Positions 2,315 to 37,123 of a stretch of DNA of 64,000 nt are shown here, piece after piece; positions within the stretch are counted from its first letter, which is position 1; each line of letters starts with the position of its first letter. A program made the position numbers and the translations under genes. Under the pieces are notes generated by a model. It was given only the letters and a program-made list of their open reading frames with translations. It had not been told where the DNA came from and made no database searches. Source of the stretch: Ecdyonurus torrentis (lineage: Eukaryota > Arthropoda > Insecta > Ephemeroptera > Heptageniidae); assembly GCA_949318235.1 (NCBI GenBank), contig OX439130.1, positions 40,811,260 through 40,875,259 of the forward strand, given 5' to 3'.

Positions 2315-2436
2315 GTCTGAGAAAAGTGTATCCTTACTACTTTACGTTCACTACTTTCACCAAGGGGCGATGGGTGGGTGAGAAAATCCTTGACGTATTT
2401 GCAAGAGAATTCCGCGCGCATCCAGCAGAGGAATAT
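2315..2436 (+). CDS. RPUSD2: RPUSD2 exon: LRKVYPYYF and KGRWVGEKILDVF segment
   Basis: Begins after GTTGCAG with two bases of a split codon and ends at TAT before GTAAGT. It encodes LRKVYPYYF and KGRWVGEKILDVFAREF, typical of the N-terminal S4-like region of RPUSD2. Confidence 0.9.
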
Positions 2437-4623
2437 GTAAGTATCAAATACGTCACTTTTCATTCAAATAAAAGACAAGAGGGTACAATTTCCCAGTTAA
2501 TTTCAATTGAACAACAGAGTGCGAGATAATCATTTTATATGAGACAATCTTAACGTTGCTCCTCTACTAAACTATGATTTTTTTTTCTTTGCTCTGCTGT
2601 GAATTTTTTTAACTATAAATTTGTGTAATATTCCTTTTTTTTATATAATGCTACAAATATATATCTAGATATAAATATACCATAATGAAATAATGTTATA
2701 CGTGATATCTATATCAATACACATTCTAAGCATCAATATATAAAGTAGAAGTTAACAAATCACGGCACCACTTTGATACGTTTTGTCACTATAACTAATA
2801 TACCATATCTATCTATATTTACATGTTCTATCTATACATACATATAGATTGCGTTGACTTTTTTTTTAACGTATTTAGCATCTAAAAATAGACTTTACGT
2901 AAGATGTGAAGAATATAGGGTGCTACCTCATCGCTGTCTAAATTGATTGATTACTCCCAGACTATATATACAAATAATAAAATACATTGTCAAACCTTCC
3001 TGATTTACAGCATCACATCGCTATACTAATATCTAGCACTCGACACATAATATCATCTCCATTGTTTTTATGTGCGAGCCGTTCTATTGTTTATGCAATA
3101 CAATGACCTATTATTACACTTATTGGACTGCATGCTGCAAAAAATTATCAATATTTATAAATAATAGTTATAGAATAAATTAAACTAGGAAATAATTATT
3201 ATTTTTAGTATTATTAAAAAGAGAGAATAACAATATTTTTTTTTTTAGCAAAAAAAAAAATCATTATAGTCTTTTTAATTCTTGCATTTCTATCAGTTTT
3301 ACTTGATAACCTAATATGAAATATAATTTTGTGATAACACTTGAACTTTAAAATTCGAACTAGGTATTTAAAATAATTAATTTGAATATGAAGTTAGTTT
3401 TCATAACGTTAATTATTGTATATGAAATGCGTAAATTTTTATTTGTGCACTTCTGACAATCATTGTAAAAATTTCACACATTTTTAAAACGACAGAAACT
3501 CAAACTCAAAACTCTGATAATAAATTGAAATCTGAATGTCATTTTAAAGCAATACGCACTACTGTTGAACCATATATTTCCGGTAATGACGAGCTTCACC
3601 CATTTACTAGAGGTCAAGAGTATACGTGTCTCAAATTACATCTAATATTTCAGAGTTGAGTATACTTCAGTCACTCTACATCAAGTGTATACATGTATTG
3701 TGGTTTGCTTGCTATGTATATATAGTATCTCTATTACTATGTCAAACAGCAAATGTCCCCCCTCCTCTTATGTAAACACCTTGGATGATATATGAATTAA
3801 TGTTTCAGGAGCGGTGTATCAAGGCGGGTACATTAACTGTCAACTATGAGGCTGTGGACACTGACTATCGTCTCAAACACAACGATCTGCTGGCAAACAT
3901 TGTACACAGGTAATTGACCTCTCAAATTATATATATCACTCACTTCACCTCCTCACATGTAACCGTATACCAATATGAAGAGGCTGCTCTTCACCCACAT
4001 GAAGCACAATGTTATACGTACGTTGCTAGGTAGCACATTTTCTTGTCTTGTTTTAAATGTTTGATATCAAATATACATATAAGAGACGTTGTGTTTAATT
4101 AATGTCAGGTGTATTATTTTAAAGACTTTTTGACTCTTTTTAAATTCTCAATGGATATTAAATAATAACAGTAAAAAATATTTCCAAACTTTTGCAGCAT
4201 ACATTAAATAAACTAAAGTCTTTCTATTTTTATTTTTTTAGAGTAACGTATGCTGGAGGGCATGCAATTTTTATTCTTATGTTATAAATTTTAATTTTTA
4301 TAAAATTTAAGTATATAATCTCTTTTTAAATGTGTTTTTATATGTTAATCTTTCACGTACATTTGCAAAACAAGCTTCAATGTATAAATTAAAAATGAGC
4401 ATCCAAAATAAAGCAAAGTATTCAATAGTGTTGCCAAGGCAATTGAATTAAATATTGAGAAATTTCTAGAAAAATACATAATCAACAGAGATTGTACTTT
4501 TATTTATTATTTTTTCACCACAGTTTAAAATTTGTTACCTGGGAAACGGTTAACCATAAAGTTGCATACCTTTAAGGAAACTTGACTAAACCGACCTCTT
4601 TTAGGCAGATTTTATTGTTCGTC

Positions 4624-4674
<51 letters not shown>

Positions 4675-6468: not shown

Positions 6469-6501
<33 letters not shown>

Positions 6502-6825: not shown

Positions 6826-6858
<33 letters not shown>

Positions 6859-8451
6859 ACGTTACAGAGTTTTACTTTTTTATGATTATTATTATATAAT
6901 ATTGTCACCTGTTGTTGGTCCACACACTGTTACGACACGATTGCGCAAGTCATAAAACTGGCTTTTGCATTTCATCTATTTTTCTCATACACAATTATTA
7001 TTATTATAATCTACAACACTTGTCAAAAATTTCAGACCTATATATAAAATTTTACGTGTCTATTTTTGACAAGTACAGTAGACAGCATACGAGGACTCAA
7101 AATGTTAAAATTGATTACTCATTATACTTATAAAGTGAAATAAAAATGTATTTTCTCTTCAAATTTAGTAGAAAATCTAAAACCGATTTAATAATCTTTT
7201 AAGTCCTCATCTATATATTTAAATTAAATCCAATACTATGTTTATTTCACGCTTTTAATCTCAAGTAATGCTATTTAAAATAGTAAATTAGGCTTGCAAA
7301 TATTTAGAACCCAAAATGCGTACCAAAATATTATTTAGGTATAATCCTTTATTAATAACGATATTTATAGTGCTTTTAATCATCTTATTTCTTAATTATT
7401 GCAAATATTTTATATTTTCATAAAAAAATATGTTTTTATGGAAAGATTGATGAATAATCCGCCACTTACAGTTTTTTTTTTATTCCTCTCCCTCTCTCTC
7501 TTGCAAAAATGGTTCTATAAACTTGAAATCATTTAGCTCGTCTCTTCAATGTATAAACCATAAATCACGTAGAGGATGCTGATGTATAAAAGATAAAGTT
7601 TTTGAATTGAGAGTTCGTTAAATGGTATTTAAACTACAGAGAAGCTCATAAAATTAATGTTTATATTCATAAAGTGTGCGTATAAAATTCTTATTTTACT
7701 ACTTTTTCGCATTATATGTATATAGATTTTTTTTAAGTAATACTTTTATGTTTATTTTTTAATGATGTATTAATGTAATAGTTATTGATTTTTTCAATGC
7801 ATTTCAAGTAGTCAAAATGTCAAAAAAATAGGAAGTGAAAGGAAAATTGCATTGATTTCATAGCTTTTATAATGAATCTCATAATTTACTATTTTAATGG
7901 AAATTTTCAAATTAGTTTTTCATTTGTCGCCTATAAACATTTTTTGTTTCTCTCTGTCTCACTTTTTTCCCCGCTTTATAGGAATTACGAGCATAGTCTG
8001 TCTGTAGTATACTAAATCATAAAAAGCTAAATATAAATTCTATATTTATTTTCTCTACCAATTTAACAAGATATAACTTTCTACGGCTTCTTTATAATGA
8101 AGCAAATCAGAGAATTTGATAATAAATAAAACTCTACAATGAAAATAAGCTATAATATGTAATATAATATTATTATTTAATAATACATTATTATATCTAT
8201 ACTAAAGATATTAAATAAAAAAAATAGATGTTAATTGAAACACTTGTAAGTAGTCAGCATACTCTCATTGTTTAAACTTTCGTCTTTCAATTTCTGCGGT
8301 ATTATTTTATATATAGTAATGTAGAGATGTAAGTTTTGTAAGAGACAGTATAATAATAAGTAATTTTAACATTTGTGTAACTAACAAAGCTAAGTGAAGC
8401 GAGAGACGAAAATGTATTTAGATAGAGAGGTCGTGTAATGTATACGTGTAT

Positions 8452-8511
<60 letters not shown>

Positions 8512-11500: not shown

Positions 11501-12324
11501 ATTACAAAGTTTGTCTTCTTCCTTATTGTATAGAGATATTTTATATTAGTTATAAATCTGTTGCGATTTATTAGTTTGTTGGGTGCAAGGAGGCAGGATA
11601 TTTTGTGACTTGCAGTGAGTCGTCACGTCCTGGTACAAAGAAGAGGAGAGAGAGAGAGAGAACGATTACCACTCCATCATGTGAGTGACAAATAAACGTT
11701 CAGCAAACACAACAAACATGCTAGATATTTTTCACTTCTCTCCTTATTTATTGACGATGTGATCCAAATCACGATTACATTTTTTTCAATTTATTTATTG
11801 TCAACATTTTTTTATATTTATTTTATTGACAGTAAAGTTTTTTTTTACGTAAATTTATTATTCCCATTGTAGTTATTTTTATTACATTCATCAAAGTATG
11901 TTTGACAAAATGAATGAAATATTGTTTATTTGAAGTTAAATTTTACTTTTGTGAAAATTCACCTGTTTTGTTAACATTTTTAAAACTTTCAACAACATAA
12001 AATGCTCTCTCTCTCTCTCTCTCATTAATACTAAAACTTTCAACCAAGTGAGTACACAAAAAGAATAGATGATTCAATTATAATAAGAGAAAATTATTTA
12101 AATTAAGAATAATAAATTATAAGTTAACAATAATGATAAAAATATATATTTGCTAAAAGTTCAAATTGGTTTTTGATACACTGATCAAAACTAATGTTTA
12201 ACCTTAAAATAAACACAATATTTATCTACAATATTATACTAATTAATATGTCAATAATATTCAAAAACAAAGTGATGAAAATCAAATAGAAAGAAAACGA
12301 GTCTATTTGTGGTAAATATTTTGC

Positions 12325-12355
<31 letters not shown>

Positions 12356-13471
12356 CACGTGTCTACTAACGTAAGTAAACAAAATAAATTTGGCATTCGA
12401 TCAGATCCCGCACCGCCATACACACATGTGTGTTTATTCGTTGGTTTCGCATGTCAAGGATCACGTTTGTTGACTTACACGTGTTTGGTAAGCTCAACAC
12501 GAACAAGAAAAACACCGAGATACTCGAGTGACCCAGCCCGACTTTCTTTATATTGACAACTCTCAATCATCCTAATGGAGAAGGTATATAATACAAAAAT
12601 TTCCAATCTCATTACATCAATTCAATCACGTTTCATCGATCAAATATACTAGGATTACATTTAATTTGCGTCATTATTGATATTACTATATGTATATACA
12701 TAACGTCAATACACTTAGTTATAGCTTATTTATTCATATTAAAATTTTATTTTAGTAGTTTCAATATGTACGCTGTTTAATAATATTTATACAAATATGT
12801 GTTACAAAAATAAAATAAAAATAGTTTTATGGATATAAAAAAGTCGCTGTGCCATTATATAGGGATAAAAGAAAATTAAAGCTTTATCAGTCACTTTAGT
12901 ATAATTTATTAAATGTATAATGCATCAAAAGATTATTTGCCTGAAAACTAAAAACGTTCATTCAATATTCTTTGATGGTAGAAACATCCATGGCCATGGG
13001 TAAAAATTGACTCGTAAACATGCGTTTTTACTGTCTATCTCGAATCTCTCTTTATCTCTCCTTGTGCTCCCTTTTACTCATCAATTTCCAATTTCTATAT
13101 CTACTGTCACCAATCGTATTTTTTTAATTAACTAAAAGTGATTTTCATAAATAAACTATAACAACATTGAAATGATTTAAATTTAATTATTTTGTTTGTC
13201 ATTTAATATTAATTGCTAATTTTGTTGATAAATGTTGAAAAGTTCAATTTATTTTATAATTAGCATTTTATTTACAAACAACAAATCACAAAATGTACTA
13301 CACTATAAAGTTTGTATAATAATAAAAGCAAGTTTTATTTATTTAATTTTAATTTATCGGCCTAATAGAATTAGTTATCAAATTATTATTTTAGTTAATG
13401 ATGAAGTTAACTTTTAATTAAAACATTTATAGTATGTAACGTTGAAATAGTATTGACAGTTTAATTGTTGA

Positions 13472-13551
<80 letters not shown>

Positions 13552-16500
13552 TCATCCATACATGAATTATTGATACAATATAATTATTTTTGTATTTGCT
13601 TTGTGTGGTACTTTTAAAACATTCCAATTGCAGTATAGCCACATAAAACAAATTTTTAGTATTAATATCGTAAAATATAATCATAAGGTTTAACATCCTA
13701 TGTTTTTGTCGTATATTTAAATATTTTTATTAAATATTTTAAATTTATAAATTACATATTACAATAGGGTGCGTTTTATTTTATAACCATTTATCTGCAA
13801 TAGAAATATATAGCCTTAGATTTCTTATTTAGTTTGCACTTATATATTATAATCGCCTCAAAATATAATCAAAATAATATTTTCCATTGAAATGCAACAA
13901 AAATTACTCTCCTTTATTTTTTTAGTAAATGAACTTTTAAATGAAAGCAATTTTATAAATTAAATTTAAATTTTGAGTTCATTTTTTTTTTTTTTTTTTT
14001 TTTTTTTTGTATTAAACTGAAAGTAAATTTGTATACAAGGGGATTTAATATTCATGTGATACAGAGAGAGATCATTTGTAATGTAGCTTGGACGTTGTGG
14101 TTTCTGTAAGGAAAACTGTTCGTGTATACCACAGAAATGTGTTATTCATACATTTTATATAAGAAAGTGAGAGAGAAAGAGCAATTTTTTTACTGCTTCA
14201 TTTCATTCCACTAAAGTTGTTAATCTTACCTTCTAACTAGTTTCATACTCTTTGTATGTACAACATTAAAAAAAAAACTCTGCACTTTATACGAGTAATA
14301 TCCTAATTGCTGTGCATTTTTTTTTTCTACGATACTGTTTACTTTGATTGAATTTTTTCTGTCTTAACGAAAAACGTGTTTTTGTGAAGTTAACATAAAG
14401 TATAGTAGAGTAATAAAGTTTGCTTATTACATTAATTATATAATGTTTAGCAGTGCTGTGATTTATAGTAAATTTCAAAGATTGCTTTCAACGTTAGGTT
14501 TTTAATTTCATTGTTATGTTTGAAATTTATTAAACTTTATGTTATATTTTATACTTTTTATCGTAATGAAACCGTAATGCTTTATTTTATATATAATAAT
14601 CTGTTTTTATTATAAATGTACAAAAGTAAACATTCTTTTGAATTTATAAATAAGCAAAACCAACATTTTATTAAATAAACCAAAGGCATATAATAGTAAA
14701 AGAAAAAAAGTGACAAAGTTTTAAAAACTTTTATTCATTATACGCAATGTATTTAGTTTTTCTTGTCCACATTAAAATTTCCAACCTTTTTTTCTTCTTT
14801 TGTTTTAATATTGTAATTAGTTATTTTTCATATACAGGGCACATATTTTAACAAAATGAAAACCAAAATTATATCTCACGATTCAAACCACATTTTTTTT
14901 TTTTTGTTTAGAGTAACAAAATGTTATAAAATAAATCTAAAAAAAAAAGAGAGAGGGGGGGGGGGGGGGAATTATGTACATTTATTTTTTGCTGTTGTTA
15001 CCGCATCAAAAAGATTTTTAATAAATTTATTCTGTATAAGTAAACAAACAGACAAACAAAAAGCTAAATCTCGCTCTTGCTTTTGTATTCTATTTTTGAT
15101 ACATTGTTGCTGCATTTTCTTTCCCATTGTCTTTATATCGATACCAGTAAGTATTTTTAGCCACAATAGAAACTAAACACACAAAAAATTATCACTGACT
15201 TTTTTTTTCTTCTTCTTCTCTCAAAAGAAAATGTTCAAAGTATTTTCTTTTTCTATTGTATTAAAACATATATAAATTTATATAAAAATGATTTTATTTT
15301 TGCTTTGTTCTATTTCATTTTATTTGTTATTATACTATTCACTTCTGTATTACATAAAAGAAAAATCAATTTGAAAATGTTCTATTTGTCATAAATGTTT
15401 TTCTCCGAACTTTTTGTGCCATAGAATAGGAATTTTTCACTTCGGTGCAGTTAATCAGTTGTGTCTTTGGCAGTAAACTTACGTACGTTTAACGTACTCA
15501 TCGATTCAACATGAAACATCAAACTTGAGTAATATAAAATATATTGGAGTGTCGTGTATTGTACTGTACACATGATTGTGATGGTATATTTATTTTATCT
15601 TTCAAAAGCTTGTCTAAATTTTCAATATTATACTTAAAAGAATAGACCAGAAGAAAACATAAGTATTTATATCACAAAACACTTGATGGGACTTACATAA
15701 ATAACTTTAGTTTGTCTCAAAACCCAACTGATGCTCCGTATCAGTGAACAGAAAATTTCAATTTATGCAACCGGCACCACATTTTTTTTTACTAATTTTT
15801 GCATGTTTCTGATGCCAGGAACATGAATAGTCACGCAAATTGCATATTTTACGGTATTTTCACGCTCTCTTGGGGCTACATTAGCATTCTGGTAAAAATT
15901 GTCATCAGTTTTGAAGATCCCATGTCGTGTTTATTCATTAAAAAGAAAATGTTGTTTTATGTGGTCTATGCCTTTAAGAGAAAAACACGTAGTGAATTAA
16001 AATGATAAAATTTATAACAATCATGTTTACATTGTAGTTCGTTCTGTAAACTACACACAAATATTGAGCCAGCTTCGATATTTTTCCTTTGTTTAAAACA
16101 CCTGATCAAAACTTCATTACCTGTTTACTACGTTTATGTGTATAGTTGATCATTGTTACTTTTTCGTTTAGAACTGTAGAGCTGATAAGAATAAGCAAAA
16201 CTTCACACAAAAAAGTTCCATGCTCAACATGCGACTAACTTTTATCGGCTCAAAAATCAAAATCAACCAATGAATGTGTATTTTTTTTTTCAGCCAATTA
16301 TTGTTAATGAGCCTCACTTTAGTTTACAGAACAAACTTATATAACTCAAAGTATTAATTCGTAACAAAAGAAAAAAAAATGTAATTCTAATCCTATTGCA
16401 TAAAATACTGATAGCCAGAAACAAAAAGTATTGATTCCAAACTTTTTTTTCAAGGGCAATTTCGTGTCTGGTAACAAATAAAAAATGTTAAAATAATAAT

Positions 16501-18957
16501 AAACTCAATTTAATTCGCTATGTATATATTTACACGTATTGTAACTTCTATAATAATACATTCACAATTTCACACATCAAATTCCATTGTATATTATATA
16601 TTATTATACTCACCTCCAAATAAAATTATTATTATTTTAGATCTGATAGTAAAAAATTACGGTTAGTTTTTTTATTATTATTAATGAAATTAATGTATAT
16701 GGAGGTTTATTATTTTACCAATGTTATTTTCTTCCCTGGCGTATTGTTTATTTTTGTGTCATTATTATGGCCCCCCCTCCGACCACCACACACACACATA
16801 TCCAATCACAATAATAGTGGTATCAAACCAATGCTTTATGGCAAACGTTAAACTCAATTATTTATTTTATATTCCACACTAGTGTTCATAATTTTTTATC
16901 ACGTTTAACATTGATTTCTCGGAACAGGAAAAAATGTATCAAAATTTTAAACGGTACAGCATTTTGTAATTTTATATCAAACAATTGTTTTTATATTTTA
17001 TTATTTTTCCTTGTCAATTGTCAATGTTTTCGTTTATTGGCAAAAAAAAAAATGTAAATAAAAATACCTACCTGTTAGCATTATGCACATAGCTATTATT
17101 GTTGGAAAAATTGCTAAAAATAAAACATTTAAAAATTTAATTACACGTTTTTACGTTAATTAGTATACTACACTTATTTTAAAATATAAAAATTAAACAA
17201 TGTTTCTAATTACACATTTCGTCGTCTCTTTGTAGTAATATACAGGTAAAATAAAATATTATTATTAAAATCTTTAAATTAATTTTATAAAAATATTCCA
17301 ACAAAATTTCGTGATATATTAATATCGTGATTTTTATTGTGAATATGAAATAAATTTACACATTTTTGAGGTAAAGCTTATATTGAATTAGCTTACTATA
17401 ATTATTCAAAGTGTCGAGTGTAGGAAAAGCACTTTAACTGTGTGAGATTTACGATTTATTATTCAAATATATTTTAATAACAAAGCGTAATATATATTAT
17501 TTATGCAAAATCAATTATAAAACTTGGTTATATTAAAATTTATATAGCATATAAAACAAGTATGTATAAATATTGTTTTAAATTCAATCCATTTTAAGAT
17601 TTATTATAAAAAATACATATATATGTCATTGTTTATAAAAAAATATATATTTATAATTTTAATAAAAAATAAAATCAATTTTGGAAAGAATCCACAATAT
17701 TCAATTCTGTACGTCAAAATTTGCAATATAATTTATGTATTAGGAGGCTTGTTACGGAAATTGAATTTCTCGTTTTTCACTTCTTTTTTTATTGATTTTT
17801 TTTTCTTTGCATTAAAAAACATTGTGTAAAATATTGTATTATGTTTTGTGTATTATAAAATTAGTATGGAATTGTACATTTAAGGAAATATATTATTCAT
17901 GATATTATTAAATTGTGTGGGATTAAAATTTTAGTGCAACCCCTTTTATATTTTATATAATGTATGAAAGTAAATTAAAATTTAAAAACCTTATTATTAT
18001 TCTAAATGGGGGGAAGTTAATGTTTTGTTTTTTTACTTTTACACTGATAAAAAGTACTTAATAAAAATTTACATATTTAAATAAATACTAATGATACAAA
18101 AAAAAATGTTCTAAAAAATTGTTTTCATAGAATTGTTCTATTTGCACTTGAATGGTTTCTTTATACGATGTATCTTAACAAAAAAATCAAATTGCAAAAG
18201 GTAATATCTTAATCAACGACAGTATACAAAACTTCAAGGAATAGACCAGAAGAAAATATTATTTTCTACATCACAAAACATTTTATAAAACTTACATAAA
18301 TAACATTAGTTTGTTCGAAACCCAACTGTAGCGCCGTAGCAGTGATCAGAAAATTTCAACTTATGCAACCCGCACAACATTTTAATGCAAATTTTTGCAT
18401 GTTTTTGACGTCGGAAACAGGAATAATCACGCAAATAGCATAATTATAATTCATGGCTTTTATTGGGCGAAATCAGGCTACTCAACCTCTCAATTTAACC
18501 CAACTGTTTAGTCAGTTACAATTTTAAATTAGTACAAACACAAATTTCATGATGTTAATGAAATTTTTTTTCACTTATTAAATAATATTTTTAAATAATC
18601 CATATCGATAATTAGCATACGTTACGTAATATTATTTTTACGCTCTCATATGGGACCACGTTTACATTCTGATAAAAATTGGCATCACTTTTGCAAATCC
18701 CATTTTGTGTTTTATCATTAAATAGAATATGACTTGTGGTCTATTGCTTTAAGTTTGTAAACTAAATTTCTTGTAAAAAATGTAATAAAAAAAATCTACT
18801 TGCATGATCCTCAAAATGCAATAAATATTATAAGTACAATACAGACTATTTTTTAAAAAAAACGCACAAAATGTCCAAAATCGTTTTATTATTATTATTA
18901 CTATTTTAATAAATTTATCAATTTTGTGCTAAAAAGTTGTAAAAACAAGCTTTTTTT

Positions 18958-18988
<31 letters not shown>

Positions 18989-19770
18989 CTAGTTTAAATT
19001 TAATAAGTAAGTTTTTAAAACAGTAAAATTTTATAGCAAGGAAGGCAGCAGTATTATAATTATATAGTTTTCACAGTGTTTTTATATAATAATATAATCA
19101 AGTGTTTCTTTAATTATGAAGTAATTTTCCTGCATTATATAAAACACAAAATAATGTTTGCAATAGTAGTTGAAATAAAGTTTATATATTTTCACCTGGT
19201 TGTAATATAGATTAAAAGTTAATCCTTATTTAGTATAGTAATTTAAGTCTGGGTAAAGTTGAATTATTTATGATATATAATATTATTGTTTTTAATCAAG
19301 TTTTGTATTTATAGCAAACAAACTTCTTATTTTCATTAAATTTGTTACCTGCTTGCTAAGCTATTTTTAGATTAATTAATTTGTTAATAAACCTTGATAA
19401 ATAATAATATTAATATTTAGAAATTAATTTTATCTCATAATTTTTAATACTCAAGTTTTCCTTGTTCGTGTTGACCTCTATTATTTTAAATCAGATCAAC
19501 AAATTGTAAACAATAAAATAAATTATTAAATAGAAAGAAATAATATAAAACATTACATTTTGTTTTCTTAAAAACATGTGTGAGAGTTTAAAAATGTTTC
19601 TTATCCGTGCTTATAAAAATTATAATAAAAATAAAAATGTGTGTTGTGTTAAATTATTTTTTTAGTGATGCATTAATTAAAATATGTATTTAGGTATTGA
19701 ATGATGCAAAAAATAATACTGCATACTTTATTAAATTATGTTTCCATAATGAATTTGACGTATGTGTGTG

Positions 19771-19852
<82 letters not shown>

Positions 19853-20188
19853 CATATAATTTATAATTTATGAATTACCAAATATAATGAAGTACACATA
19901 TTGTTATAGCATATATCAAACTCATCATTCACTTCAATTTTATTTCATTTTATTGCCCATGACATTTGATTGAGAGTCATAAATATTTTGTAACTTTTAT
20001 GTTAGATAATTTCATGAAAACAACACAGCATATTAGTTATATCGTAAAATATTTTATGATCAAAATATAATAATAATAATAATATTATAAACAAAAATGA
20101 TTTCGTTAGAATTCTGTTGCGAGTTTATACATATTATACAAAATAATAATATATAACATTTCAAAACACAAAGGAATGATAATGCTAT

Positions 20189-20284
<96 letters not shown>

Positions 20285-22242
20285 TATATTATATATATGT
20301 AGTAATAAAAAGACAAAAGAGAGGATATTTATGAATAATTCTACGAATACTTCTATATTTACATCTTATAAATTTGTAAAATGTCATGTCAAAAATGTTA
20401 ACTCTCTTAGCGATTGTTATTTTCTCCAGTGAGTAGGAAATTGATCATAAAAGGTTGTATTATACTCAATAGTCAAACTTGTTACGAAAACGTACACCAA
20501 TTATTTTAAACCATATAGCATAAAATTTACAATATAGACAATTCTACTAAACATGAACTTGAACATACATAATATTTATTGCTAGTTTTACTTTAAATAT
20601 ACAATAAATTGTGATACAAACATTAGAGAGTGCTATAGCAAAAATCTATTGCAACAATTAATAAAAAGCTATTATAATTTTTATCGTCTCATGACTCATA
20701 ATAACGGATATAAATTATATTTAACAAAGTTATCAAATAAATATGCTATAGAACGAATACCTTAAAGTTTTCAAGGTTAATGTATTTTTAATACAGTAAC
20801 AATAATCGGTATATAGAATATTAAAATTTAACATTATAAATCAATTCTAAAATTTTGGTTGAATTTAAGCAGTAAATCACGTTTATATATTATGTCATTC
20901 ACGTTTGAAGAAATATTTTTAGTTTTTATTTCATCCTGACATTTCCATCTTTCATATTTGAATGAATGAATGGATTTAAAAACTTGGTATCAAACAGAGT
21001 GAGTGAGAGATTCTTTTTTTAAGTGTCATTTCTTTACATTTCGCTACACTTATGCAACATCCATCATTTTCAAAAGACCTAAAAACTTGTCACTTTTCTC
21101 AAGTACTAAATCTTTGAATTAAAACGTAATAATAAAGACAGGCGTAACAAACGAATACTTTGTCGTTGCTAATGATGAACATAATTATATCTCGACAAAC
21201 ACTTGAGAAAATAAAAATAAACAAGAATTTTAAAGATATTATTGAAGTGAGTGCAAAATAAATTTAGTAATGATGATGAAAATATTCTATATTTAAATAT
21301 AGATCATTATGTAGATTCAAATATAAATATATTAATATATTAATGATGTAATGATTAGTAATGTAATCATTACTTTGTGATTTCATCATCTTATAGTTAA
21401 AATGTGATTTTCTCTTCGATATTTAAAATCAGCGATAAAGTTAACAATGATGATCTCTACTTATTGCAGTGTCGTGTTTTACGGACATATTTTGAGAATT
21501 GCATTTATTATTTACAATTATTATTAAAATATACATTTTACTTATCTTATTAACTTAGCAAGGGTTTCAAATAATAATAATACTTAAAGGAATAGACCAG
21601 AAAAAAACATTTATATCACAAAACACTTGATGGGACTTACATAAATAACTTTAGTTTGTCTAAAAACCCAACTGTAGCTCCGTAGCAGTGATCAGAAATT
21701 TCAATTTATGTAACCCGCACAACATTTTCATACTAATTTTTGCATGTTTCTGACGTCATAAACATGAATAGTCACTTAAATTGCATACTTTACAGTATTT
21801 TCACTCTCTCTCGTGGGGCTACATTAACATTCTGGTAAAAATTGTCAACAATTTTGAAGATCCCATTTCGTGTTTACTCATTAAAAAGCACAAAACATGT
21901 TGTTTTATATGGTCTATGGCTTTAAAAGATAAAATAATATCATTATCTTGAAATGCTATAAAAAGCAATGTTTTCTGCACATTTAATTTTAAACACCAAT
22001 GTGGTTGAGCACTTCAATATATTTTATAATAAGCGTATAAAAAAAATCATGAGTATGCATATTAGTTATAAAATAATTTTTAGAATAAAGATAATTGCTG
22101 ATTAAAAATTGTGTACATTTTTTATCATATTAATTATTCTAGTTGGTTTCAAAAATGAAAATGTTAAAACGGTGATATGTATAGTACTTTTACTTTGATT
22201 TTAAGTACTATGGTAATACAAGTATACCTTCTCACAAAACAC

Positions 22243-22288
<46 letters not shown>

Positions 22289-25200
22289 ACCAGCACAGTA
22301 AAACTCTACTAACCTGTTGATTATAATAACCTATTATTTTGATTATTAGAGTATTTTAATATAAAGGTCAAATTCTGACACTTATTTCTAGAAAAAGTTG
22401 CATAATACTACCATGCTAATAAAAATTTTAACAATTAAAAAAAAAAACTTTTTCAATATATTTATCTTAAAATTTTATAATCCAAACTGTATATATTTTT
22501 ACCCTGTGATTATATTTGTGTTTGTTATGTTTATCTATATATATCCTCACTTGAGTGAGTATGTTTTTGTTCTTTTATACCCGGTGCAGTGTGGTTATAT
22601 ACCCTGTGTGTGTTACCCTTGTTTTACAGACATGAGGTGCCTGTGACGGCGCACCCTATCGCAGTGGTACACATGGACCCAGAGATTGTTGTTGTTGACA
22701 AGCCTGCATCCATCCCTGTAAGTGGCTCTGAGACGCCAACTTTTCTTCTTTCTCTCTCATCATCACGTCACTTTTCTAAACATTCACGTCATTATAATAA
22801 TAGTAATAAAAAAATCAAAATAATTATCTGTATTTTTACAAGCACCAATGTTTTTGTACTTGGTTACGTATTATAATATATGAAAAAATGAATGGTGCTG
22901 CCCTTTTTTTTATTTTTCTGAACTCACCGTGTTACACTATGTTTTAATGCGTTAAGATTTCTTGATAAAAACTTAAAAAAGGGGTTTAAAGAAGAAAAAA
23001 AGCACATCAACACTGCTACAGCAGAATAACTTTAAACCTTATTTTTGTATAAGCTGACGTGAATTTTTAGAAAACTGATTTCTTATCCATATTTTTATCC
23101 TGTTTTTTCCACTTTTTTTTGTCTTCTTATTTATTATTATGAACACCAATATCTTCTTCTTGATTTATTCTTGAGTAACAGCAAGACAACCCATTTTCCT
23201 CCCCAACTGTCTGCGGAATCACAGGTAATTCTTCACCTCTATCTTTTTAGTATTTCATATCACCGAGATGCGATCTTACTTATAAAAAAACAAAGCAGGT
23301 AATACAATAGCTATATAATATACATATTTTTATACTAAAATATCAATATAAATTATGCTTTTATATAAATTAAAGAAAGAGATAGTAAAATTAGAAAGAT
23401 TAGTAAATTAAAGTTATAAGATAAACAATACTTTTAATAAAATATTCACCAGATGTTTCTAAACTTTTAGTAACTTATTTAGTTAAAAGTTTCCATGCCA
23501 CTTGCTGATATTTATTAATTTTTTTCTGCTTTTAATTTCACTTTTTGTACTTCCCCCCCCCCCCCCTTTTTGTTAAAAGTTAAAACAAAATGAGTCAATT
23601 AAATTACGTAAGAAATTTACAATGGCGTAACAACAACTTAAATTGTAGAATATAATTATACAATTAAATAGTTAAATTCTATTTCAAATTTAAACACAGT
23701 AAAACTTATTATTAAATTAGTATTAAAAAAAAATCTTCTCTTCTTTCCTTTATGCATGTATCATACGTTTTAGTGACAAATATCCAATGAAAAGGATGAA
23801 CAGCATGAAAAAACTAAACGAATTCCCCCACCCCCTTTTTTTTTGTCAAAACAAATCATACAAAAGTAAAGATCTTTAAATTAAAATCTTAAATTAAATA
23901 AGACAATATTTAAGATCTTTCAATACTTCTTAACCAAATAATTACGTTAAAATATACTTTAAATAAATAAACAAAAACAAAAAAATTAATCTTGAAAATT
24001 GAGTTATATTATACTTGAAAGAATATAATTGTTTTATCTTTAAGATTTAACTTTTGTTGTCTTTCATCCAATTTTTTTATACGTTAATAAATTTAAAATA
24101 AAAAAAAGTTATTTTATATTATAAGCTTAATGAAATTTACTTTTGCTTTTAAAAAAAATTTAATTAGATTTTATAAGACACAATAATTTTCAAATAAATA
24201 AACTTTAAACAATATACAGACAGTTATTTTTTTTACCATACATTAAAAAAAAATAATAATAGTATTAAAAACAATCTTCATGTAAATGCGTTATAAATTT
24301 CAAAATCTGTAACAAAAAACGAGCAAGTAAAAGTAAACAGCACTCTTGTGGGTCTTCTGAAATTTAATGTTCTATATAAAAAGCTATTTTATACATAAAC
24401 TATATACGTGGAGCAAAATGGACGCATCATAAATCGCATTATTTTGATAGCTTTTATATGACACAGTATAATAGTAGCATAAAAAAAGAAAAAACACCAG
24501 CATTATAAGGTCACAAATAATAATAATATGTATAAATTGTAATATATAGAAAGAAAGAAAAAAAAAGTATTACACACACAATATATAATATGATGTAAAA
24601 GGACCTATAGAAAGGTATGTGTTATTTATGTCAAATTTTACAGACATGAAACCCCAATCTTAGCAAAGCGTATTCAGCTAGTTCATGTCGACGACGAACT
24701 AGTAGCGCTCGACAAACCATGTTCTTTACCGGTAAGTGTTTTCTGTATTGTCAATATGTAAAAAAAAACCGATATACTTTCATATAAGTTGCTAAAATAC
24801 TTAAAGTTTGAGTATAATTATATACCATTGGATTACATTAACAATATTTTTTTAAGAGATTGACAAAATGAGAATCGAATAACATTTCATGCACGATGAA
24901 ATTTGTCTTAAATATCATCAATACCCATTATACACTTGATCAATAACTATAATGTGTGTATTCTAATATGTGGTAACATTTTGATATGAATACTGTAAAT
25001 CGTTGAATTCAAGTAATTTTTTTATACCAAATAATGTTTTGACAAAAAAAAATCAACTCAACTCAAAATTTAACTTTTAGCGGTTTTGCAATCTTTTAAA
25101 AATCTTTGTTAAAGTTTTTCCTCCTTTTATGAAAGTCAAGTTTTTAACGCAAACAAAGTAGAAAACTAACAAGAGATCCTCAAATATTGACGGCTATTTT

Positions 25201-28200: not shown

Positions 28201-31200
28201 AAAAAAAATAATAAAAAAATAATAACAGCAGCTTTCATGTCTATGTCAAATATATGGGGAAATTTTAACACATTCAGTCGGATTTTTTGTCGGGACCAGT
28301 ATAATGATTTAAAAAGAGACTTTACAGAGTGACTGAAACATTTGCATATTTTATTTTTTTAAAGTTCTGTGTATAAGATTGCCTGTGGCGTGAGAACAGA
28401 GAAACGTGTATAGAATGCGTGACTTGAATATTATTATTATTCTGGTTATCCACAACTGAGAGGAGGGGGGAGGGGAAGCATCTTAGTCACAATGACTACT
28501 TGTATTGTCATAATATGATTGATTTTTATTTGTTCTCAATGTTTTCAACATTTTTCTCATGGAGAAAAATAAACTTTTTTTAAGAGTTTCTTCCAAAAAA
28601 AAAAAAAAAGGATTTAATGCTTCTTTTGTTCTTGCATGTAAACAAAAGATTTTTTTTTTTTCGAAAATACATTAAAATAATATTTAATGTACGTTCAATC
28701 AATAAGTCTTATATTGTTTGTATATTTTCAGAGAAATTTGCATAATAGAGAATGGCTTCGTATAAAATCAAAATGATTTTTATTATTATTATTTTTGTAA
28801 TCACATTCAAACTAATGATAAAAAATAGAAGAAGAATATAAAAAAGAGAAGAAGACTGTAATTTTGCAAGAGAGTAGTTACTAGGTTAAAGTTTAGTTAT
28901 TGGCTGGTACAGATTGAGAAATGGGGGAAAAGTCAATTAGATAGTAAATCTAAAATTTGTATATACATGGAAATTTTGCTACAGGCAACAAGCATTTTTT
29001 TTCCCCTCCATTGCTTTTTGAACACAAAATGTAGAGCAATAAATTCATCAGAAATGAATTTGAAATTAAATACCATATTATCATTTGCTTTAGTTAATTT
29101 AATTAAAATAAAAGAGCAGAGATTAAAAACTTGTACAATTTTGAAGAATAAATAAGACGTGTATTATTAATATTAAATGTTTGTTCAAAATATATTCTTC
29201 TTTTTTTTTAATCAATACCATTTAATTCAATAAAATAAATGAAAATTGTACATTTTCACCATTACATTTTTACCGCGTAGTTTATTGTGTTAAAGAAAAG
29301 CACTACATGAGGGAAAAAAAAAAGTTAAGGAAAAAAAATAATAAATTAGATATTTTCCAAAAGAGTAACTTTCTTTTTATAAAACTTTTATTTGTTAAAA
29401 AAAAGGAGGAGGAGGAGGAAGAAAAGAAATAGGTTGGGAATGTATGTGAGTAGTTTTTTAATTCACTTCACTATGGGACGAGTGGAACACAATGCAATAG
29501 AAGTTAGTCTACTTTTTATTTTATTATATATCTGAGACGTATATAGTATGTATATATACACGTTCACAATAAGTAACGTAGTGTACGTTTACGTACTGTA
29601 CACATACACGGGGCCAACGGGACCAGTGTACTTGTATGTGTACACAGAAACCACAATCTATTTATTTTGTTATCTGACCTTCTCTATATCTTGACTTTTA
29701 GTAAACCAATTGAGTCAAAGGATGTGATTTTAGTAAACAATTTAATTACACTTTACGTACCTAACGTTTGACTGGTGTTTACTTTTTTAAAATACAAACA
29801 GTTATTTTATACGTCTTTTTTTACCTTTAATATTGAAAGTAATTACGAAAGTAGATTAATTAGATTTATCGTCTCATGAGGTTACATTTTTAATATCTTT
29901 TATATTTGTACCAAATTTTCAAGGATTTGTAAAAGTTTTTGCTATACAAATTATACTATAAATAGATAATTTTTAATATTAAAGTCATGGTATTTTTTAT
30001 TATTATTATTTAATTATGAAGATTTGATATTGTGGTACATAATAAAATTAAAAATAGCATTAACTCAGTCAATAAAAAAATGGAGGGCGAGGCTTAGACT
30101 TGAAAACATAATGAGATAGCTAGGAGTAAACTGCAGAAAAATATCTATCTCTAATTTTTTTTTCCTCTTGTTGTAAGATATTCATAAACTCGACCAATTA
30201 AAAAAACTCATTTGACTAATCTAAAAGAAAATGAATATTTTACAATTGTTTCTTGCAAAATTACAGTTATAATTCCAATCAATGTAATTATTTATTTGAT
30301 TCATATAAGTCATCTTAAAGAGAAAAATAAAAAAAGCCAAGATCGATTTTCTCAACAATGATAATAGGTCGAAGTGAAATGCATTGCGTCAATGGCAAAG
30401 CGTTGATGATTATTTTGTTTGCTTGTATCAGGTTCACCCATGTGGACGGTACCGTCACAACACCGTGGTGTTCATCCTCGCCAAGGAGTACAACCTGAGG
30501 AATCTGCGCACCATTCACCGACTGGACAGACTCACAAGCGGCCTACTCTTGTTCGGACGTTCCCCAAGAAAGGCACGTCAAATGGAACAACAGATTCGTA
30601 ATCGACAAGTACAGAAAGAGTACGTTTGTCGTGTCGAGGGATGTTTTCCTGAGTAAGTATATAGCCCAACGTGATTCTTTTTTTTTTTCTGATAGGCTGA
30701 TAAGGGTTCAGTGGAGGTGCGTGGTGTCAAAACTATGACAATTTTATTTTTGTTTGGATAATTTTTCTTCGACTTTTTTTGTAGTAGTACACCGAATATA
30801 GCAAACGTGATATATTATAACTGTCATAACCTGTTTTTTTTTTTTTTTTTTTTTTTGTCTGCTTTGATTTTTTTTTTTTTTTTTTTTTACTTTAACCTCT
30901 ACTTCTTATTCTTATTAGTTTTGTCAAGCCATAATCTAATCGAAAGTTGCTACAGAATCATTCTTATTCACTCATAGTTACTAAATTAGTAAAGTATCTG
31001 TATTTTAGACAGACCAAGTATATCTCCACGCGTATGCGTCATTCATTCATTATGGTAGCCTAAAATTATAAAACAAAAAAATGTAATATAGTATTTTGTA
31101 AACAGATTTTTTTTTTTTTTTAATAAGTTTTGAGCACCCTCCCTGCAATCACATTAAAATTTGCGATAAATTGTGTTCTTCCTTTGTGTTCTTTGTCGAG

Positions 31201-33835
31201 AAAGTTACTAACAATTTATCAATAAAATTCATTTGATTAAAACATTCCATCAAATTTAGTCACAGTGAAAAATATCCGATATTCTAGCTCGCACAAAGTA
31301 GACGTCAATTTGGCTTTACAATGGCGTTTTACAACAAATCAAGAATATTTTTTGCAAAGAAAATATATTTAGTTGAGAATAAAAGAAAACGGAATGATGA
31401 ATGAAAGAGATTATTTTAATTTTGAAATTCTCGATTTGTCTTAAACGTAAGTATTAAGTGGATCATATTTGAAATGTATCAGTGAGATATAATTTATTTT
31501 TACATTATAGGCTCGAACATTGATAGTAACACCAATATCACAATACTCACACACTCGATCACATTATTTTAATGTGTAAAATACGTTCAAAAACTTCACT
31601 ATATATGTGAGCAGCTGTTTTATTGTTTATTTTCAAGTACCTTTACCTTTTTATGGAAAAACAAATAATGGAAATATGAGAACAATGTAAATTTTAATAG
31701 ATAAAAAACTGCTTTGTTTAAAATTCAGTTTAGTTAATTTCTCTATTGTTTTTCAATTAGAGTCTTTTGTTTAGTTTTTGTGTAAACATTTTTGCTTACA
31801 TACATCGTAATATATTGAGTTTATATAGTTTAATATTTATACTTTCCCCACCCCACTAAGCAGAAAAAACTAGAAAACAATAAATATTTATTTGAATAAA
31901 TGATAAATATCTTTATAATTTATAAAATAATGCATATCTGAAGTTGCATTTAATATAATCTACGTAATAAATAAATTTATGTTAGAGGATTGTGTACCCA
32001 AGGATGGGCTATTGTAGCCTCTAAATAGAGTAATACATTATATTTTACATGGTTTTTAAAAGCATATCATGTATCTTAAATTTTTTGTTTAATGGTGTTT
32101 ATGCTGCAGTTTGAGGTAATTTTATGATTGTGATGTTTTCAGAGAGGAGGTGAGGTGTACAGAGCCAATCGAGGTGGTGAGTTACAAGATTGGCGTGTGC
32201 AAGGTGTCTCCCAAGGGCAAGGATTGTGCTACCACGTTCCTCAAGCTGAGTTACAATGGACGCACCAGTGTAGTCTTGTGCAAGCCACATACTGGTCGTA
32301 TGCACCAAATCAGAGTACATCTGCAGTACCTGGGTAAGACTTTTTATATAACCTCATTCATTTAAAATAGAACTTAAGAGACAGGAATTGTATAACTTGT
32401 ATTGTGGTCCTGAAATGAAATAAACGGAGAATAAAAATTAATGTGTTTTACAGGCTACCCTGTGGTGAACGATCCTCTGTACAACCACACTGTGTTTGGT
32501 CCTGAAAAAGGCAAGGGCGGCGTGATTGGCAAGAGTGATGAAGATTTGATCCGTGACCTTATCAACATCCACAATGCAGAGAACTGGCTTGGCATGGACG
32601 GTGACTCAGACCTCATGCTTAGCCCTACTCTTGCTCTTCCCCTGCCACCAGCTGACTCCTCAGACTCACAAGGTAAATTAAGAAATTGTGAGCAGTTACA
32701 TCAATGTCAGTATACTAGATTCTTCAGATTACCACTTTGCAGAAAAATGCAAATATCGTATTTTGGGGTCCAGAGGTTAACCAAACCAAAAGACTACTTC
32801 CAAATTTTCACAGAATATGATAGGCATTATGACATATCAGAGTAAAATGACTGTAATGTTAAGAATACAGTCAAATGTCGCTTTCATGTTGAATGACGTG
32901 CACTCAACTTAACTTTCAATTGTTGTAGAGTCCAGCAGTCCTGGTGATTCTCCCTGTGATGAAGCGAGCTCTAGCAAGGTGACTGTGGCCACACAGACAG
33001 GTCATGAATCACCTGATATGCGCTTTGAGCCCGCTAAGATGAGCAGAGACCCTCACTGCTATGAGTGCAAGGTCAGGTATCGTGACCCTAAGCCTAAGGA
33101 CCTTGTCATGTACCTGCACGCATGGAAATACAGGGTATGTTATGCTCTCATTATGTATCTAAACTTTGACATTAGATTTGTTAATGAAATCGAAATATTA
33201 TTATTATTAATTTTTTTTTCTTTGCACAATACAATGAGGAGCAATTACATAATTTATGCTGCATTTATGTCACTATAGCATAAATATTTGTTAATTGGAA
33301 CAGCAGGAAAAATAATTACATATGATGTATCATACATATGCTGTAAAGCATAAATTGTTGATTTGCTGAATGTGGGCGAACATATAATATTTAGTTGTGT
33401 CCAGAAATATTAAAATTCAAGTTGTAATTTGTTTACTGCCGCGCAAACAAAAATCATATTTAATTTTATGTCAGTATTTTGAAAGTAAGATTTATTTGTA
33501 ATATTTCATATCCTCTATTATATGTTGTTCTAAATCTCATGTATTAATATTCATTGCTTTGTTTTCTCTTTCTCTCTGATCATATAGACTTCAATAAACA
33601 ATGTATCATATAGCCAACCAAAATCGCCTGTATCCATGTAGTATAATCAAATAAATAATATCAAATCTTAAAGAAACTAATCTCCAAAGTAATTTAGTGC
33701 TTATGTCGTGAAAACTGCACTGGAACAAAATTTACTCATTTAAATTGTATTTTTGTTTTGCAGGGCCCTGGTTGGGAGTATGAGACGCAATTGCCTGAGT
33801 GGGCAAAAGAAGACTGGGAAGAAGTCTTGGAATGA
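2315..33835 (+). CDS. RPUSD2: RPUSD2, RNA pseudouridine synthase of the RluA family (5' partial, multi-exon)
   Basis: The coding exons are 2315-2436, 3809-3909, then either 22630-22717 or 24644-24731, then 30432-30652, 32143-32333, 32454-32672, 32929-33134 and 33764-33835 (TGA stop). All junctions are GT-AG and the phases join, giving about 405 residues in the window. Order along the protein: an S4-like RNA-binding segment in the first two exons; the DKPxS(I/L)P motif; VHPCGRYRHNT; the catalytic loop IHRLDRLTSG, whose Asp is the nucleophile known for this family; EKEYVCRVEG-like core; GRMHQIRVHLQYLG; and a C-terminal tail with a CxxC pair and GPGWEYE. Family members isomerise uridine to pseudouridine in RNA; human RPUSD2 acts on RNA in the nucleus. 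The first exon(s) are missing. Likely poly(A) signals (AATAAA) begin about 70 bases after the stop. Exons are clearly less AT-rich than the introns. The assignment rests on end-to-end similarity to animal RPUSD2. Confidence 0.93.
3809..3909 (+). CDS. RPUSD2: RPUSD2 exon: end of S4-like segment
   Basis: Lies between TGTTTCAG and GTAATT, in phase 0 in and phase 2 out. It encodes ERCIKAGTLTVNY and YRLKHNDLLANIVHR, matching the 'xxGxVxVN...YxLxxGDxI' pattern of S4 domains in RluA enzymes. Confidence 0.9.
4625..4671. repeat. (TA)n microsatellite
   Basis: Uninterrupted alternating T and A. Short open frames reading YIYIYI across it are artefacts. Confidence 0.97.
8455..8508. repeat. (TA)n microsatellite
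   Basis: Alternating T/A tract in the RPUSD2 long intron. Confidence 0.97.
9777..10141 (-). mobile_element. TTAA-flanked MITE, copy A
   Basis: Bounded by TTAA on both sides. The left end reads AGCCATAGAC and the right end GGTCTATTTCT; these are imperfect inverted repeats of the family AGGAATAGACC / GGTCTATGGCT. It is inverted relative to copies B, C and D and contains a full TGACGTCA at 9958-9965. There is no coding capacity. TTAA targets suggest a piggyBac-type helper (inference). Confidence 0.85.
13473..13550. repeat. (TA)n microsatellite
   Basis: About 78 bases of alternating T/A. Confidence 0.97.
15634..15977 (+). mobile_element. TTAA-flanked MITE, copy B
   Basis: Starts TTAA then AAGAATAGACC and ends GGTCTATGCCT then TTAA. 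The body aligns with copies A, C and D along its whole length, for example ACTTACATAAATAACTTTAG and GGGGCTACATTA. Confidence 0.88.
16036..16337. mobile_element. small MITE with GTTCTGTAAACTA terminal repeats
   Basis: AGTTCGTTCTGTAAACTA at 16036-16053 is mirrored by TAGTTTACAGAACAAACT at 16320-16337. The interior is about 300 bases without coding sequence. It lies 58 bases after MITE copy B. Confidence 0.7.
18233..18752 (+). mobile_element. TTAA-flanked MITE, copy C, interrupted by an insertion
   Basis: The left boundary has decayed to TTCA followed by AGGAATAGACC; the right end is GGTCTATTGCT plus TTAA. About 180-200 bases around 18440-18630 are absent from the other copies. The insertion is flanked by a short AGCATA repeat. 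Confidence 0.82.
19774..19849. repeat. (TA)n microsatellite
   Basis: Long alternating T/A tract inside a wider palindrome (GTATTATA ... TATAATAC). Confidence 0.97.
20203..20280. repeat. (TA)n microsatellite
   Basis: Long alternating T/A tract preceded by (TAT)n. Confidence 0.97.
21584..21926 (+). mobile_element. TTAA-flanked MITE, copy D
   Basis: The best preserved copy: TTAA + AGGAATAGACC at the left and GGTCTATGGCT + TTAA at the right. It carries TGACGTCA at 21751-21758. Confidence 0.9.
22243..22286. repeat. poly(T) tract
   Basis: About 44 consecutive T residues, 340 bases upstream of the first alternative RPUSD2 exon. Confidence 0.95.
22630..22717 (+). CDS. RPUSD2: RPUSD2 alternative exon A (DKPASIP version)
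   Basis: Lies between TTTTACAG and GTAAGT, 88 nt, phase 2 in and 0 out. It encodes RHEVPVTAHPIAVVHMD and VVVDKPASIP, very close to vertebrate RPUSD2. It joins in frame to the VHPCGRYRHNT exon at 30432. Exon B at 24644 occupies the same slot. Confidence 0.93.
23182..23224 (+). other. possible 43-nt cryptic exon between the two alternative exons
   Basis: A 43-nt segment is bounded by AACAG and GTAATT and is less AT-rich than its surroundings. It would shift the frame, so it could only be a poison or cryptic exon. No similarity to any protein is seen. Confidence 0.15.
24644..24731 (+). CDS. RPUSD2: RPUSD2 alternative exon B (DKPCSLP version)
   Basis: Lies between TTTTACAG and GTAAGT, 88 nt, with the same phases as exon A. 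It encodes RHETPILAKRIQLVHVDD and VALDKPCSLP. 15 of 29 whole codons encode the same residue as in exon A. If both exons were included, exon B would be read out of frame and meet TGA at its second codon. That favours mutually exclusive use. It joins in frame to 30432. Confidence 0.88.
24732..30431 (+). other. RPUSD2 intron (5.7 kb)
   Basis: No supported coding exon. It contains T and A tracts (for example around 25868-25894 and 27224-27247), a GA-rich stretch near 29403 and a slightly GC-richer patch near 29540-29650. Confidence 0.75.
30432..30652 (+). CDS. RPUSD2: RPUSD2 catalytic exon (HRLDRLTSG)
   Basis: Follows TATCAG and ends before GTAAGT. It encodes VHPCGRYRHNTVVFILA, the catalytic TIHRLDRLTSGLLLFGRS segment and QKEYVCRVEGCFP. 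The Asp in RLDR is the conserved nucleophile of pseudouridine synthases. Confidence 0.95.
32143..32333 (+). CDS. RPUSD2: RPUSD2 exon (TGRMHQIRVHLQYLG)
   Basis: Lies between TTTTCAG and GTAAGA. It encodes EEVRCTEPIEVVSYKIGVC and KPHTGRMHQIRVHLQYLG, the conserved RNA-binding and core motif of RluA enzymes. Confidence 0.95.
32454..32672 (+). CDS. RPUSD2: RPUSD2 exon (YPVVNDPLYN)
   Basis: Lies between TTTACAG and GTAAAT. It encodes YPVVNDPLYNHTVFGPEKGK, the last core motif, followed by a variable acidic and serine-rich linker. Confidence 0.94.
32929..33134 (+). CDS. RPUSD2: RPUSD2 exon (CxxC tail)
   Basis: Follows TTGTAG and precedes GTATGT. A serine-rich start leads to DPHCYECKVRYRDPKPKDL and VMYLHAWKYR, a tail conserved in RPUSD2 orthologues. 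The two Cys may bind metal (inference). Confidence 0.92.
33764..33835 (+). CDS. RPUSD2: RPUSD2 last exon
   Basis: Follows TTTGCAG and encodes GPGWEYETQLPEWAKEDWEE, ending at TGA 33833-33835. Several AATAAA hexamers follow from 33904 on. Confidence 0.93.
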   Translation, partial: GPGWEYETQLPEWAKEDWEEVLE

Positions 33836-36971: not shown

Positions 36972-37123
36972 GTTAACTTCAAATTTAATTTAGGCATTCT
37001 TTACTGGAAATTTAAATTTTTCATTGTTGATAGGTTCATAATGAAACTCTGTTTCTAAGATTTTAAAAGTTTGAAAATTTACAGTGTTTTAAAGGAAATT
37101 ATCGCAATTTTACTATAATAAAA

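What the first reader, a model, noticed from the sequence alone, without database searches (positions are those of the whole stretch)
22630..24731. Mutually exclusive exon pair at the DKPxS motif of RPUSD2
Two exons of exactly 88 nt, with identical phases and the same TTTTACAG acceptor and GTAAGT donor, encode alternative versions of the same segment (DKPASIP or DKPCSLP). 15 of 29 residues are identical. Including both shifts the frame and hits TGA at once. Both are intact, so both versions appear to be kept by selection. The segment belongs to the conserved core next to VHPCGR, so the switch could alter RNA substrate choice. I do not know of a described case in RPUSD2.
Basis: partly seen in the sequence, partly recalled or inferred. 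Interest (0 to 1): 0.9.

Follow-up and report, generated by a model that had tools for sequence, protein, structure and literature searches.

The report
Ancient exon switch in RNA-modifying enzyme
A gene, probably from a mayfly, for an enzyme predicted to modify RNA carries two versions of one exon of its catalytic core, both versions also occur in other insects and in crustaceans, and cells likely splice in one or the other to make two forms of the enzyme.

Summary
Exons A (22630-22717) and B (24644-24731) are 88 nt each, same phase, with TTTTACAG acceptors and GTAAGT donors. They match at 15/29 residues but only 5/30 third codon positions. Either alone keeps the RPUSD2 frame; both together, or neither, brings a premature stop. 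No other exon of the gene is doubled in the window, and no second RPUSD2 locus was found in the genome.

The main result is comparative. A-type and B-type segments are two sequence classes across Pancrustacea: B occurs in seven insect orders, a springtail, decapods, an isopod and copepods. In a mosquito and two beetles the A and B proteins are identical everywhere outside the segment; in two shrimps of one genus the flanking 75 + 150 residues are identical. Six gene models read A then B, the order seen here.

So this is very probably an ancient pair of mutually exclusive exons in a pseudouridine synthase. I found no paper describing it. Exclusivity in transcripts, tissue regulation and any change of RNA target were not tested. 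No intronic RNA pairing stood out. All 17 listed Drosophila representatives are A-type, which may be why fly work did not meet it.

The parts
22630..22717 (+). Exon A, 88 nt, phase 2 in / 0 out; HEVPVTAHPIAVVHMDPEIVVVDKPASIP
   Evidence: Sequence and splice sites; A-class relatives
24644..24731 (+). Exon B, 88 nt, same phases; HETPILAKRIQLVHVDDELVALDKPCSLP
   Evidence: Sequence and splice sites; B-class relatives
22718..24643 (+). Intron between A and B, 1,926 nt
   Evidence: no third exon copy found
2315..2436 (+). Coding exon (GLRKVYPYYFTFTTFTKGRWVG...AEEY)
   Evidence: Splice sites and homology
3809..3909 (+). Constitutive exon upstream of the pair (ERCIKAGTLTVNYEAV...NIVH)
30432..30652 (+). 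Constitutive exon downstream of the pair (VHPCGRYRHNT...HRLDRLTSG...GCFP), with the HRLD motif
32143..32333 (+). Coding exon (EEVRCTEPIEVVSYKIG...VHLQYLG)
32454..32672 (+). Coding exon (YPVVNDPLYNH...DSSDSQ)
32929..33134 (+). Coding exon (ESSSPGDSPCDE...HAWKYR)
33764..33835 (+). Last coding exon with stop (GPGWEYETQLPEWAKEDWEEVLE)

Best explanation
The RPUSD2-family gene in this window carries two homologous 88-nt exons, A and B, each of which alone keeps the reading frame, and its pre-mRNA is likely spliced to include one or the other, giving two predicted versions of the enzyme's catalytic core. The pair is old: A-type and B-type segments form separate classes found across insects and crustaceans (shown). 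Because 88 is not a multiple of three, a transcript with both exons or neither meets a premature stop (shown) and would be degraded or make a truncated protein (inferred), so the reading frame polices the choice. The 1,926-nt intron argues against steric crowding and all sites look like ordinary GT-AG sites, so the choice is likely made by regulatory proteins (inferred). Each version exchanges a two-strand segment ending in motif I ([DN]KPxS), while the shared next exon keeps HRLD, so both forms are predicted to be active; the switch likely tunes RNA choice or binding rather than turning the enzyme off (inferred).
For: Frame, phases and sites. Codon-position pattern and neutral simulation. B-class relatives in seven insect orders, a springtail, decapods, an isopod and copepods. 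Two classes in identity and tree (95/87; all 200 bootstrap trees). A/B proteins identical outside the segment in Anopheles coluzzii (591/591), Tenebrio (614/614) and Rhynchophorus (546/546); Uranotaenia and Penaeus pairs identical over 75 + 150 flanking residues. Six models read A then B. 15 of 67 B representatives sit on 1.6-5.7 kb contigs with one long frame across both neighbours, as cDNA would (inferred). Both forms pass PF00849 and TIGR00005.
Against: No RNA reads were available, so neither junction use nor exclusivity is shown in this species. Of its two mayfly relatives, only A-type representatives are listed for Cloeon (P0001, P0002) and only B-type for Neocloeon (P0003). Isoform models are automatic. 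All 15 cDNA-like B contigs look like copepods by sequence, not insects. Daphnia carries an intermediate segment and Eurytemora's A and B look like two genes. Drosophila representatives are all A-type (17 of 17 listed), so the pair is not indispensable. No enforcing RNA structure stood out.
Confidence: 0.9

Rival explanations
1. Both exons are used, but not strictly one or the other: A+B or skipped transcripts are a regular, regulated product that lowers the amount of enzyme through nonsense-mediated decay.
For: Both faulty forms carry an early stop, the usual make-up of such control; exclusivity was not measured.
Against: A purely regulatory exon need not keep a second functional protein sequence across insects and crustaceans.
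Confidence: 0.07
2. Exon B is an unused or decaying duplicate of A.
For: No transcript of this species seen; A is the more frequent class among listed representatives (156 to 67, though clustering hides isoforms).
Against: Codon pattern, neutral simulation, 28/29 identity to Neocloeon B, and B in many taxa.
Confidence: 0.01
3. B belongs to another gene or to an assembly error.
For: Eurytemora seems to have separate A and B genes.
Against: One contig, one locus, one set of the other exons; same-gene pairs and fused models elsewhere.
Confidence: 0.01
4. On function, within the favoured reading: the pair is real, but the two proteins have the same RNA targets and the difference serves folding, stability or a protein partner.
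For: Many A/B differences are conservative (V/L, I/L, M/V); both keep motif I and score alike for the family.
Against: Fixed class differences at positions 3 and 6, and near-fixed ones at 26 and 28 (22-28 entered the class rule), over such a range suggest a specific role; the segment lies in the catalytic core.
Confidence: 0.4

Closest known systems
Tandem-duplicated mutually exclusive exons of arthropod genes (Dscam1, Mhc, N-cadherin; listings and abstracts)
   Same: Adjacent homologous exons of equal length and phase, exchange of one protein segment, conservation over long spans
   Different: A gene for an RNA-modifying enzyme, not a channel, adhesion or muscle gene; only two variants; no docking/selector pairing found; exclusivity not measured
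Drosophila RluA-1 and RluA-2 (PMC7718762, passages and one section; PMC9997552, passages)
   Same: Same enzyme family; two related forms in one animal, one neuronal and one ubiquitous
   Different: Two adjacent genes, not two exons; the two Drosophila segment kinds seen here are both A-type
E. coli RluA and RluC (structures 2i82, 1xpi)
   Different: Bacterial enzymes without exon choice; other substrates

Membership tests
Mutually exclusive tandem-duplicated exons | Adjacent homologous exons with the same phases | tested here: met
   88 nt each, phase 2/0, 15/29 residues identical
Mutually exclusive tandem-duplicated exons | Each alone keeps the frame; both or neither breaks it | tested here: met
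Mutually exclusive tandem-duplicated exons | Both variants held by selection | tested here: met
Mutually exclusive tandem-duplicated exons | Transcripts hold one or the other | tested here: inconclusive
   Isoform pairs in other species and cDNA-like contigs; no RNA reads for this species
Mutually exclusive tandem-duplicated exons | Never both in one stable mRNA | not testable with these tools
   Needs RNA data; fused A+B models exist but look like annotation errors (inferred)
Exclusion by steric crowding or by mixed U2/U12 introns | Very short intron, or incompatible site types | tested here: not met
   1,926-nt intron; ordinary GT-AG sites, GTAAGT donors
Exclusion by competing intronic RNA pairing | Docking and selector sequences | tested here: inconclusive
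   15 pairs of 500-nt flanks, best z -2.0 with 12 shuffles each; the 25 longest of 1,353 inverted repeats lie in the upstream intron; no related DNA for covariation
RluA-family pseudouridine synthase (RPUSD2) | Catalytic domain above curated cut-offs | tested here: met
   PF00849 115.4 (A) and 111 (B) bits, cut-off 26.8; TIGR00005 238.3 and 228, cut-off 192.7; best hits named RPUSD2-like
RluA-family pseudouridine synthase (RPUSD2) | HRLD motif with the catalytic aspartate (role recalled) and motif I | tested here: met
   HRLDRLTSG in shared exon 30432-30652; DKPAS in A, DKPCS in B
RluA-family pseudouridine synthase (RPUSD2) | Makes pseudouridine | not testable with these tools
   Needs an assay

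The most novel reading that the evidence does not exclude
A splice switch older than the split of insects from shrimps and copepods exchanges the motif I segment of a pseudouridine synthase and gives pancrustaceans two RPUSD2 enzymes with different RNA targets, one perhaps specialised for neurons; flies lost exon B and rebuilt a two-enzyme system by duplicating the gene into RluA-1 and RluA-2.
Probability: 0.25. Interest if true: 0.85.

Novelty: new member of a known kind. Interest (0 to 1): 0.66.

Why it matters
Pseudouridine is one of the commonest RNA modifications, yet how animals direct stand-alone synthases to different RNAs is poorly known. A conserved exon switch that changes some 12-15 residues inside the catalytic core is a natural paired experiment: same gene, same enzyme, one segment exchanged, kept in two forms over a very long time. 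[quoted passage not shown]

Tried and rejected
Intronic pairing as the enforcing device: of 1,353 inverted-repeat pairs in 3910-30431 the 25 longest, the only ones shown, all lie in the long upstream intron (4625-21858; TA arrays and repeat copies). Duplex energies of 15 pairs of 500-nt flanks do not stand out (best z -2.0, A-downstream with B-upstream, 12 shuffles each, uncorrected). Not excluded, since no related DNA was at hand.

A versus B as the difference between Drosophila RluA-1 and RluA-2: not borne out; two Drosophila segment kinds were seen and both are A-type. I did not assign them to RluA-1 or RluA-2.

A second RPUSD2 in this genome: none among the 11 and 14 matches (E up to 10; the tool scores only its best candidates). 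The weak hits beyond the window belong to a separate RluA-family gene on the minus strand; one search also gave one hit on another contig, E 0.6, to the low-complexity N-terminus.

Structure models of Neocloeon B (P0003) and Cloeon A (P0002), used as stand-ins for the spliced window proteins: mean pLDDT only 60 and 62; in the B model residues 265-278 and 300-310, the edges of the segment, are under 50. Used for placement only. RNA contacts of the segment were not examined.

Counting species with A only or B only: not attempted, because clustering at 90% can merge the A and B isoforms of one gene.

Outgroups: no named chelicerate or vertebrate appears in the listed rows (best 120, 56 and 120), so I say nothing tested about the state before Pancrustacea; that vertebrate RPUSD2 is A-like is recalled only.

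Alternative first exons: P0002 and P0003 begin differently; the own-genome search with P0003 did not complete.

Full report
What is there. The window lies in a 503-Mb genome, contig C8:40811260-40875259. It holds the 3' part of one RPUSD2-type gene on the plus strand. From splice sites and translation I get a 405-residue core from exons 2315-2436, 3809-3909, A or B, 30432-30652, 32143-32333, 32454-32672, 32929-33134 and 33764-33835 with the stop. With Cloeon protein P0002, earlier coding exons are found at C8:40603668-40603919, 40744544-40744681 and 40810950-40811054, so the gene spans about 241 kb from first match to stop. The best protein matches are mayflies, Cloeon dipterum at 93% (898 bits, two rows) and Neocloeon triangulifer at 90% (869), against 767 bits for the next animal, so the source is probably a mayfly (inferred).

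The pair. Exon A (22630-22717) and exon B (24644-24731) are as described: 88 nt, phase 2 in and 0 out, acceptors ending TTTTACAG, donors GTAAGT. Either joins its neighbours in frame; A+B gives Thr then TGA; neither gives a stop after 21 further codons. A and B match at 44 of 88 bases: 17/29 first, 22/29 second and 5/30 third codon positions. Given 44 matches, five or fewer in the 30 third positions has P = 5.6e-6. Decaying A at random to 44/88 left a stop-free copy in 24% of 20,000 runs, but 0 that also kept 15 residues. So the duplication is old and both copies have been held at protein level. No other exon is doubled in the window, and no second RPUSD2 locus was found in the genome.

Relatives. 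Three protein searches gave 228 representatives. In 226 the 29 residues before VHPCG can be read; P0169 and P0175 drop out. By the end of the segment 156 are A-type (KP[APS]SIP or KPASMP), 67 are B-type (LDKP[CS]S[LI]P) and 3 are intermediate (P0190 and P0196, Daphnia; P0168, unnamed). Positions outside that motif split the same way: position 3 is V (57) or I (1) in 58 distinct A segments and T in all 36 distinct B; position 6 is T, S, V, A or M in A and L in all B. With the window's own two added, mean identities are 22.4/29 within A, 21.5 within B and 14.7 between; 95 of 96 distinct segments are nearest to their own class, and P0214 ties. Window A is nearest to Cloeon A (27/29) and window B to Neocloeon B (28/29). 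A tree of 98 segments puts A and B on two sides of one branch (95/87; all 200 bootstrap trees), with the intermediates on the B side; 29 columns resolve little else, and the bootstrap had not settled.

Range of B. Named B carriers are a mayfly (P0003), a cricket (P0069), thrips (P0071, P0143), bugs (P0063, P0064, P0122, P0166, P0192), beetles (e.g. P0124-P0127, P0134, P0144, P0176), moths and butterflies (e.g. P0133, P0141, P0145, P0150), mosquitoes (P0090, P0172-P0174), decapods (P0130, P0131, P0138, P0177), an isopod (P0136) and copepods (P0128, P0148, P0152, P0178). The springtail model P0175 runs A straight into most of B. Order names are general knowledge; Neocloeon, Eurytemora and Orchesella were looked up and all fall in Altocrustacea. 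These lists show at most the best 120 rows of a database clustered at 90%, where A and B isoforms of one gene can merge, so they show presence and not absence.

Same gene, two forms. Against this, Eurytemora P0128 and P0214 agree only at 58/75 and 110/150, so they look like two genes; and of the two mayfly relatives only A rows are listed for Cloeon and only a B row for Neocloeon. Six gene models hold A followed by B: P0004, P0068, P0121, P0170, P0171, P0175. They show the order A then B, as here. In Popillia P0004 the reading runs on from A as ...SIPVSG, the same read-through of a GTAAGTGG donor as in this window (inferred). Fifteen of the 67 B representatives lie on contigs of 1.6-5.7 kb with one long frame across both neighbours (13 listed, 2), which looks like cDNA (inferred); by sequence they resemble copepods, so they are no evidence for insects.

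What the switch changes. The segment holds two strands in both models (284-287 and 291-295 of P0003; 305-309 and 313-318 of P0002) and ends in motif I; HRLD lies in the shared next exon. Fold comparison places the start of the RluC (1xpi_B) and RluA (2i82_B) matches at residues 300 and 296 of P0002, inside the segment. Model confidence is modest (mean pLDDT 60 and 62). Both forms pass PF00849 (115.4 and 111 bits) and TIGR00005 (238.3 and 228). So both are probably enzymes, and the change is probably one of tuning. Which RNAs each form modifies is unknown.

How the choice is made. The 1,926-nt intron and ordinary GT-AG sites argue against steric exclusion and mixed intron classes. Intronic pairing was looked for and did not stand out, but cannot be excluded without related DNA. 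I favour trans-acting regulation, with the frame as the safeguard (inferred).

Literature. Ten searches of a held open-access library. Mutually exclusive exons with RPUSD2, mutually exclusive with RluA-2, and exon duplication with pseudouridine synthase gave 0 papers. Mutually exclusive exons with pseudouridine synthase gave 10 papers (9 listed), and RluA with alternative splicing and insect gave 2; none looks like a description of this from title and start of abstract, which is all I saw of them. PMC3303723, PMC5740500 and PMC9741552 have no occurrence of the RluA, RPUSD or pseudouridine terms asked for in their main texts (passages only). Drosophila RluA-1 (sensory neurons) and RluA-2 (ubiquitous) are adjacent paralogues whose loss causes hypersensitive nociception (PMC7718762: passages and section 18; PMC9997552: passages); an exon pair is not mentioned in what I read. 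All 17 Drosophila representatives listed are A-type, although the query was B-type; D. melanogaster is not among the named ones. So B appears lost in Drosophila, which may be why the pair went unremarked. Automatic annotation already lists both forms as isoforms; the new part is recognising one ancient exon pair.

Verdict. A real, ancient and well-conserved pair of alternative exons in an unexpected gene: a new member of a known kind. Exclusivity in transcripts and the functional difference are the open steps.

Noticed in passing
G000:C8:40878139-40880198 (L011, L012; L017:2883-4939), minus strand, just beyond the window: Another RluA-family gene (PF00849 on one exon; HRLDFVTSG), facing the RPUSD2 gene about 33 kb beyond its end; the label RPUSD1-like is recalled.
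   Followed up: partly
P0190, P0196 (Daphnia), P0168 (unnamed): Segment intermediate between A and B (KPCSVP with V or I before DKP); the tree puts it on the B side. Possibly a collapsed pair in branchiopods.
   Followed up: partly
P0128 and P0214 (Eurytemora carolleeae): A-type and B-type segments sit in two proteins that differ elsewhere too (58/75 and 110/150), on contigs of different length: a copepod may have split the two forms into two genes.
   Followed up: partly
P0002 and P0003 N-termini: The mayfly proteins start differently (MQHPVHPPGWLLPAWY... and MFLRLFASIVVQSPLQ...), so alternative first exons may combine with the A/B choice.
   Followed up: no
window 9858-10096 and 21620-21858: Inverted repeat of 239 nt, 93% complementary, in the intron upstream of exon A, probably two copies of a mobile element.
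   Followed up: no
window 42794-46055, minus strand: Exons of a Nup93/Nic96 nucleoporin gene (PF04097 in two frames).
   Followed up: partly
window 48914-49615, minus strand: Reverse transcriptase fragment (PF00078, 71.1 bits), a retrotransposon remnant.
   Followed up: partly
window 37067-38419, plus strand: Open frame of 451 residues, charged and coil-like, with no Pfam match at E 0.001.
   Followed up: partly
window 61551-62644, plus strand: RCC1-repeat exons (PF13540, PF00415).
   Followed up: partly
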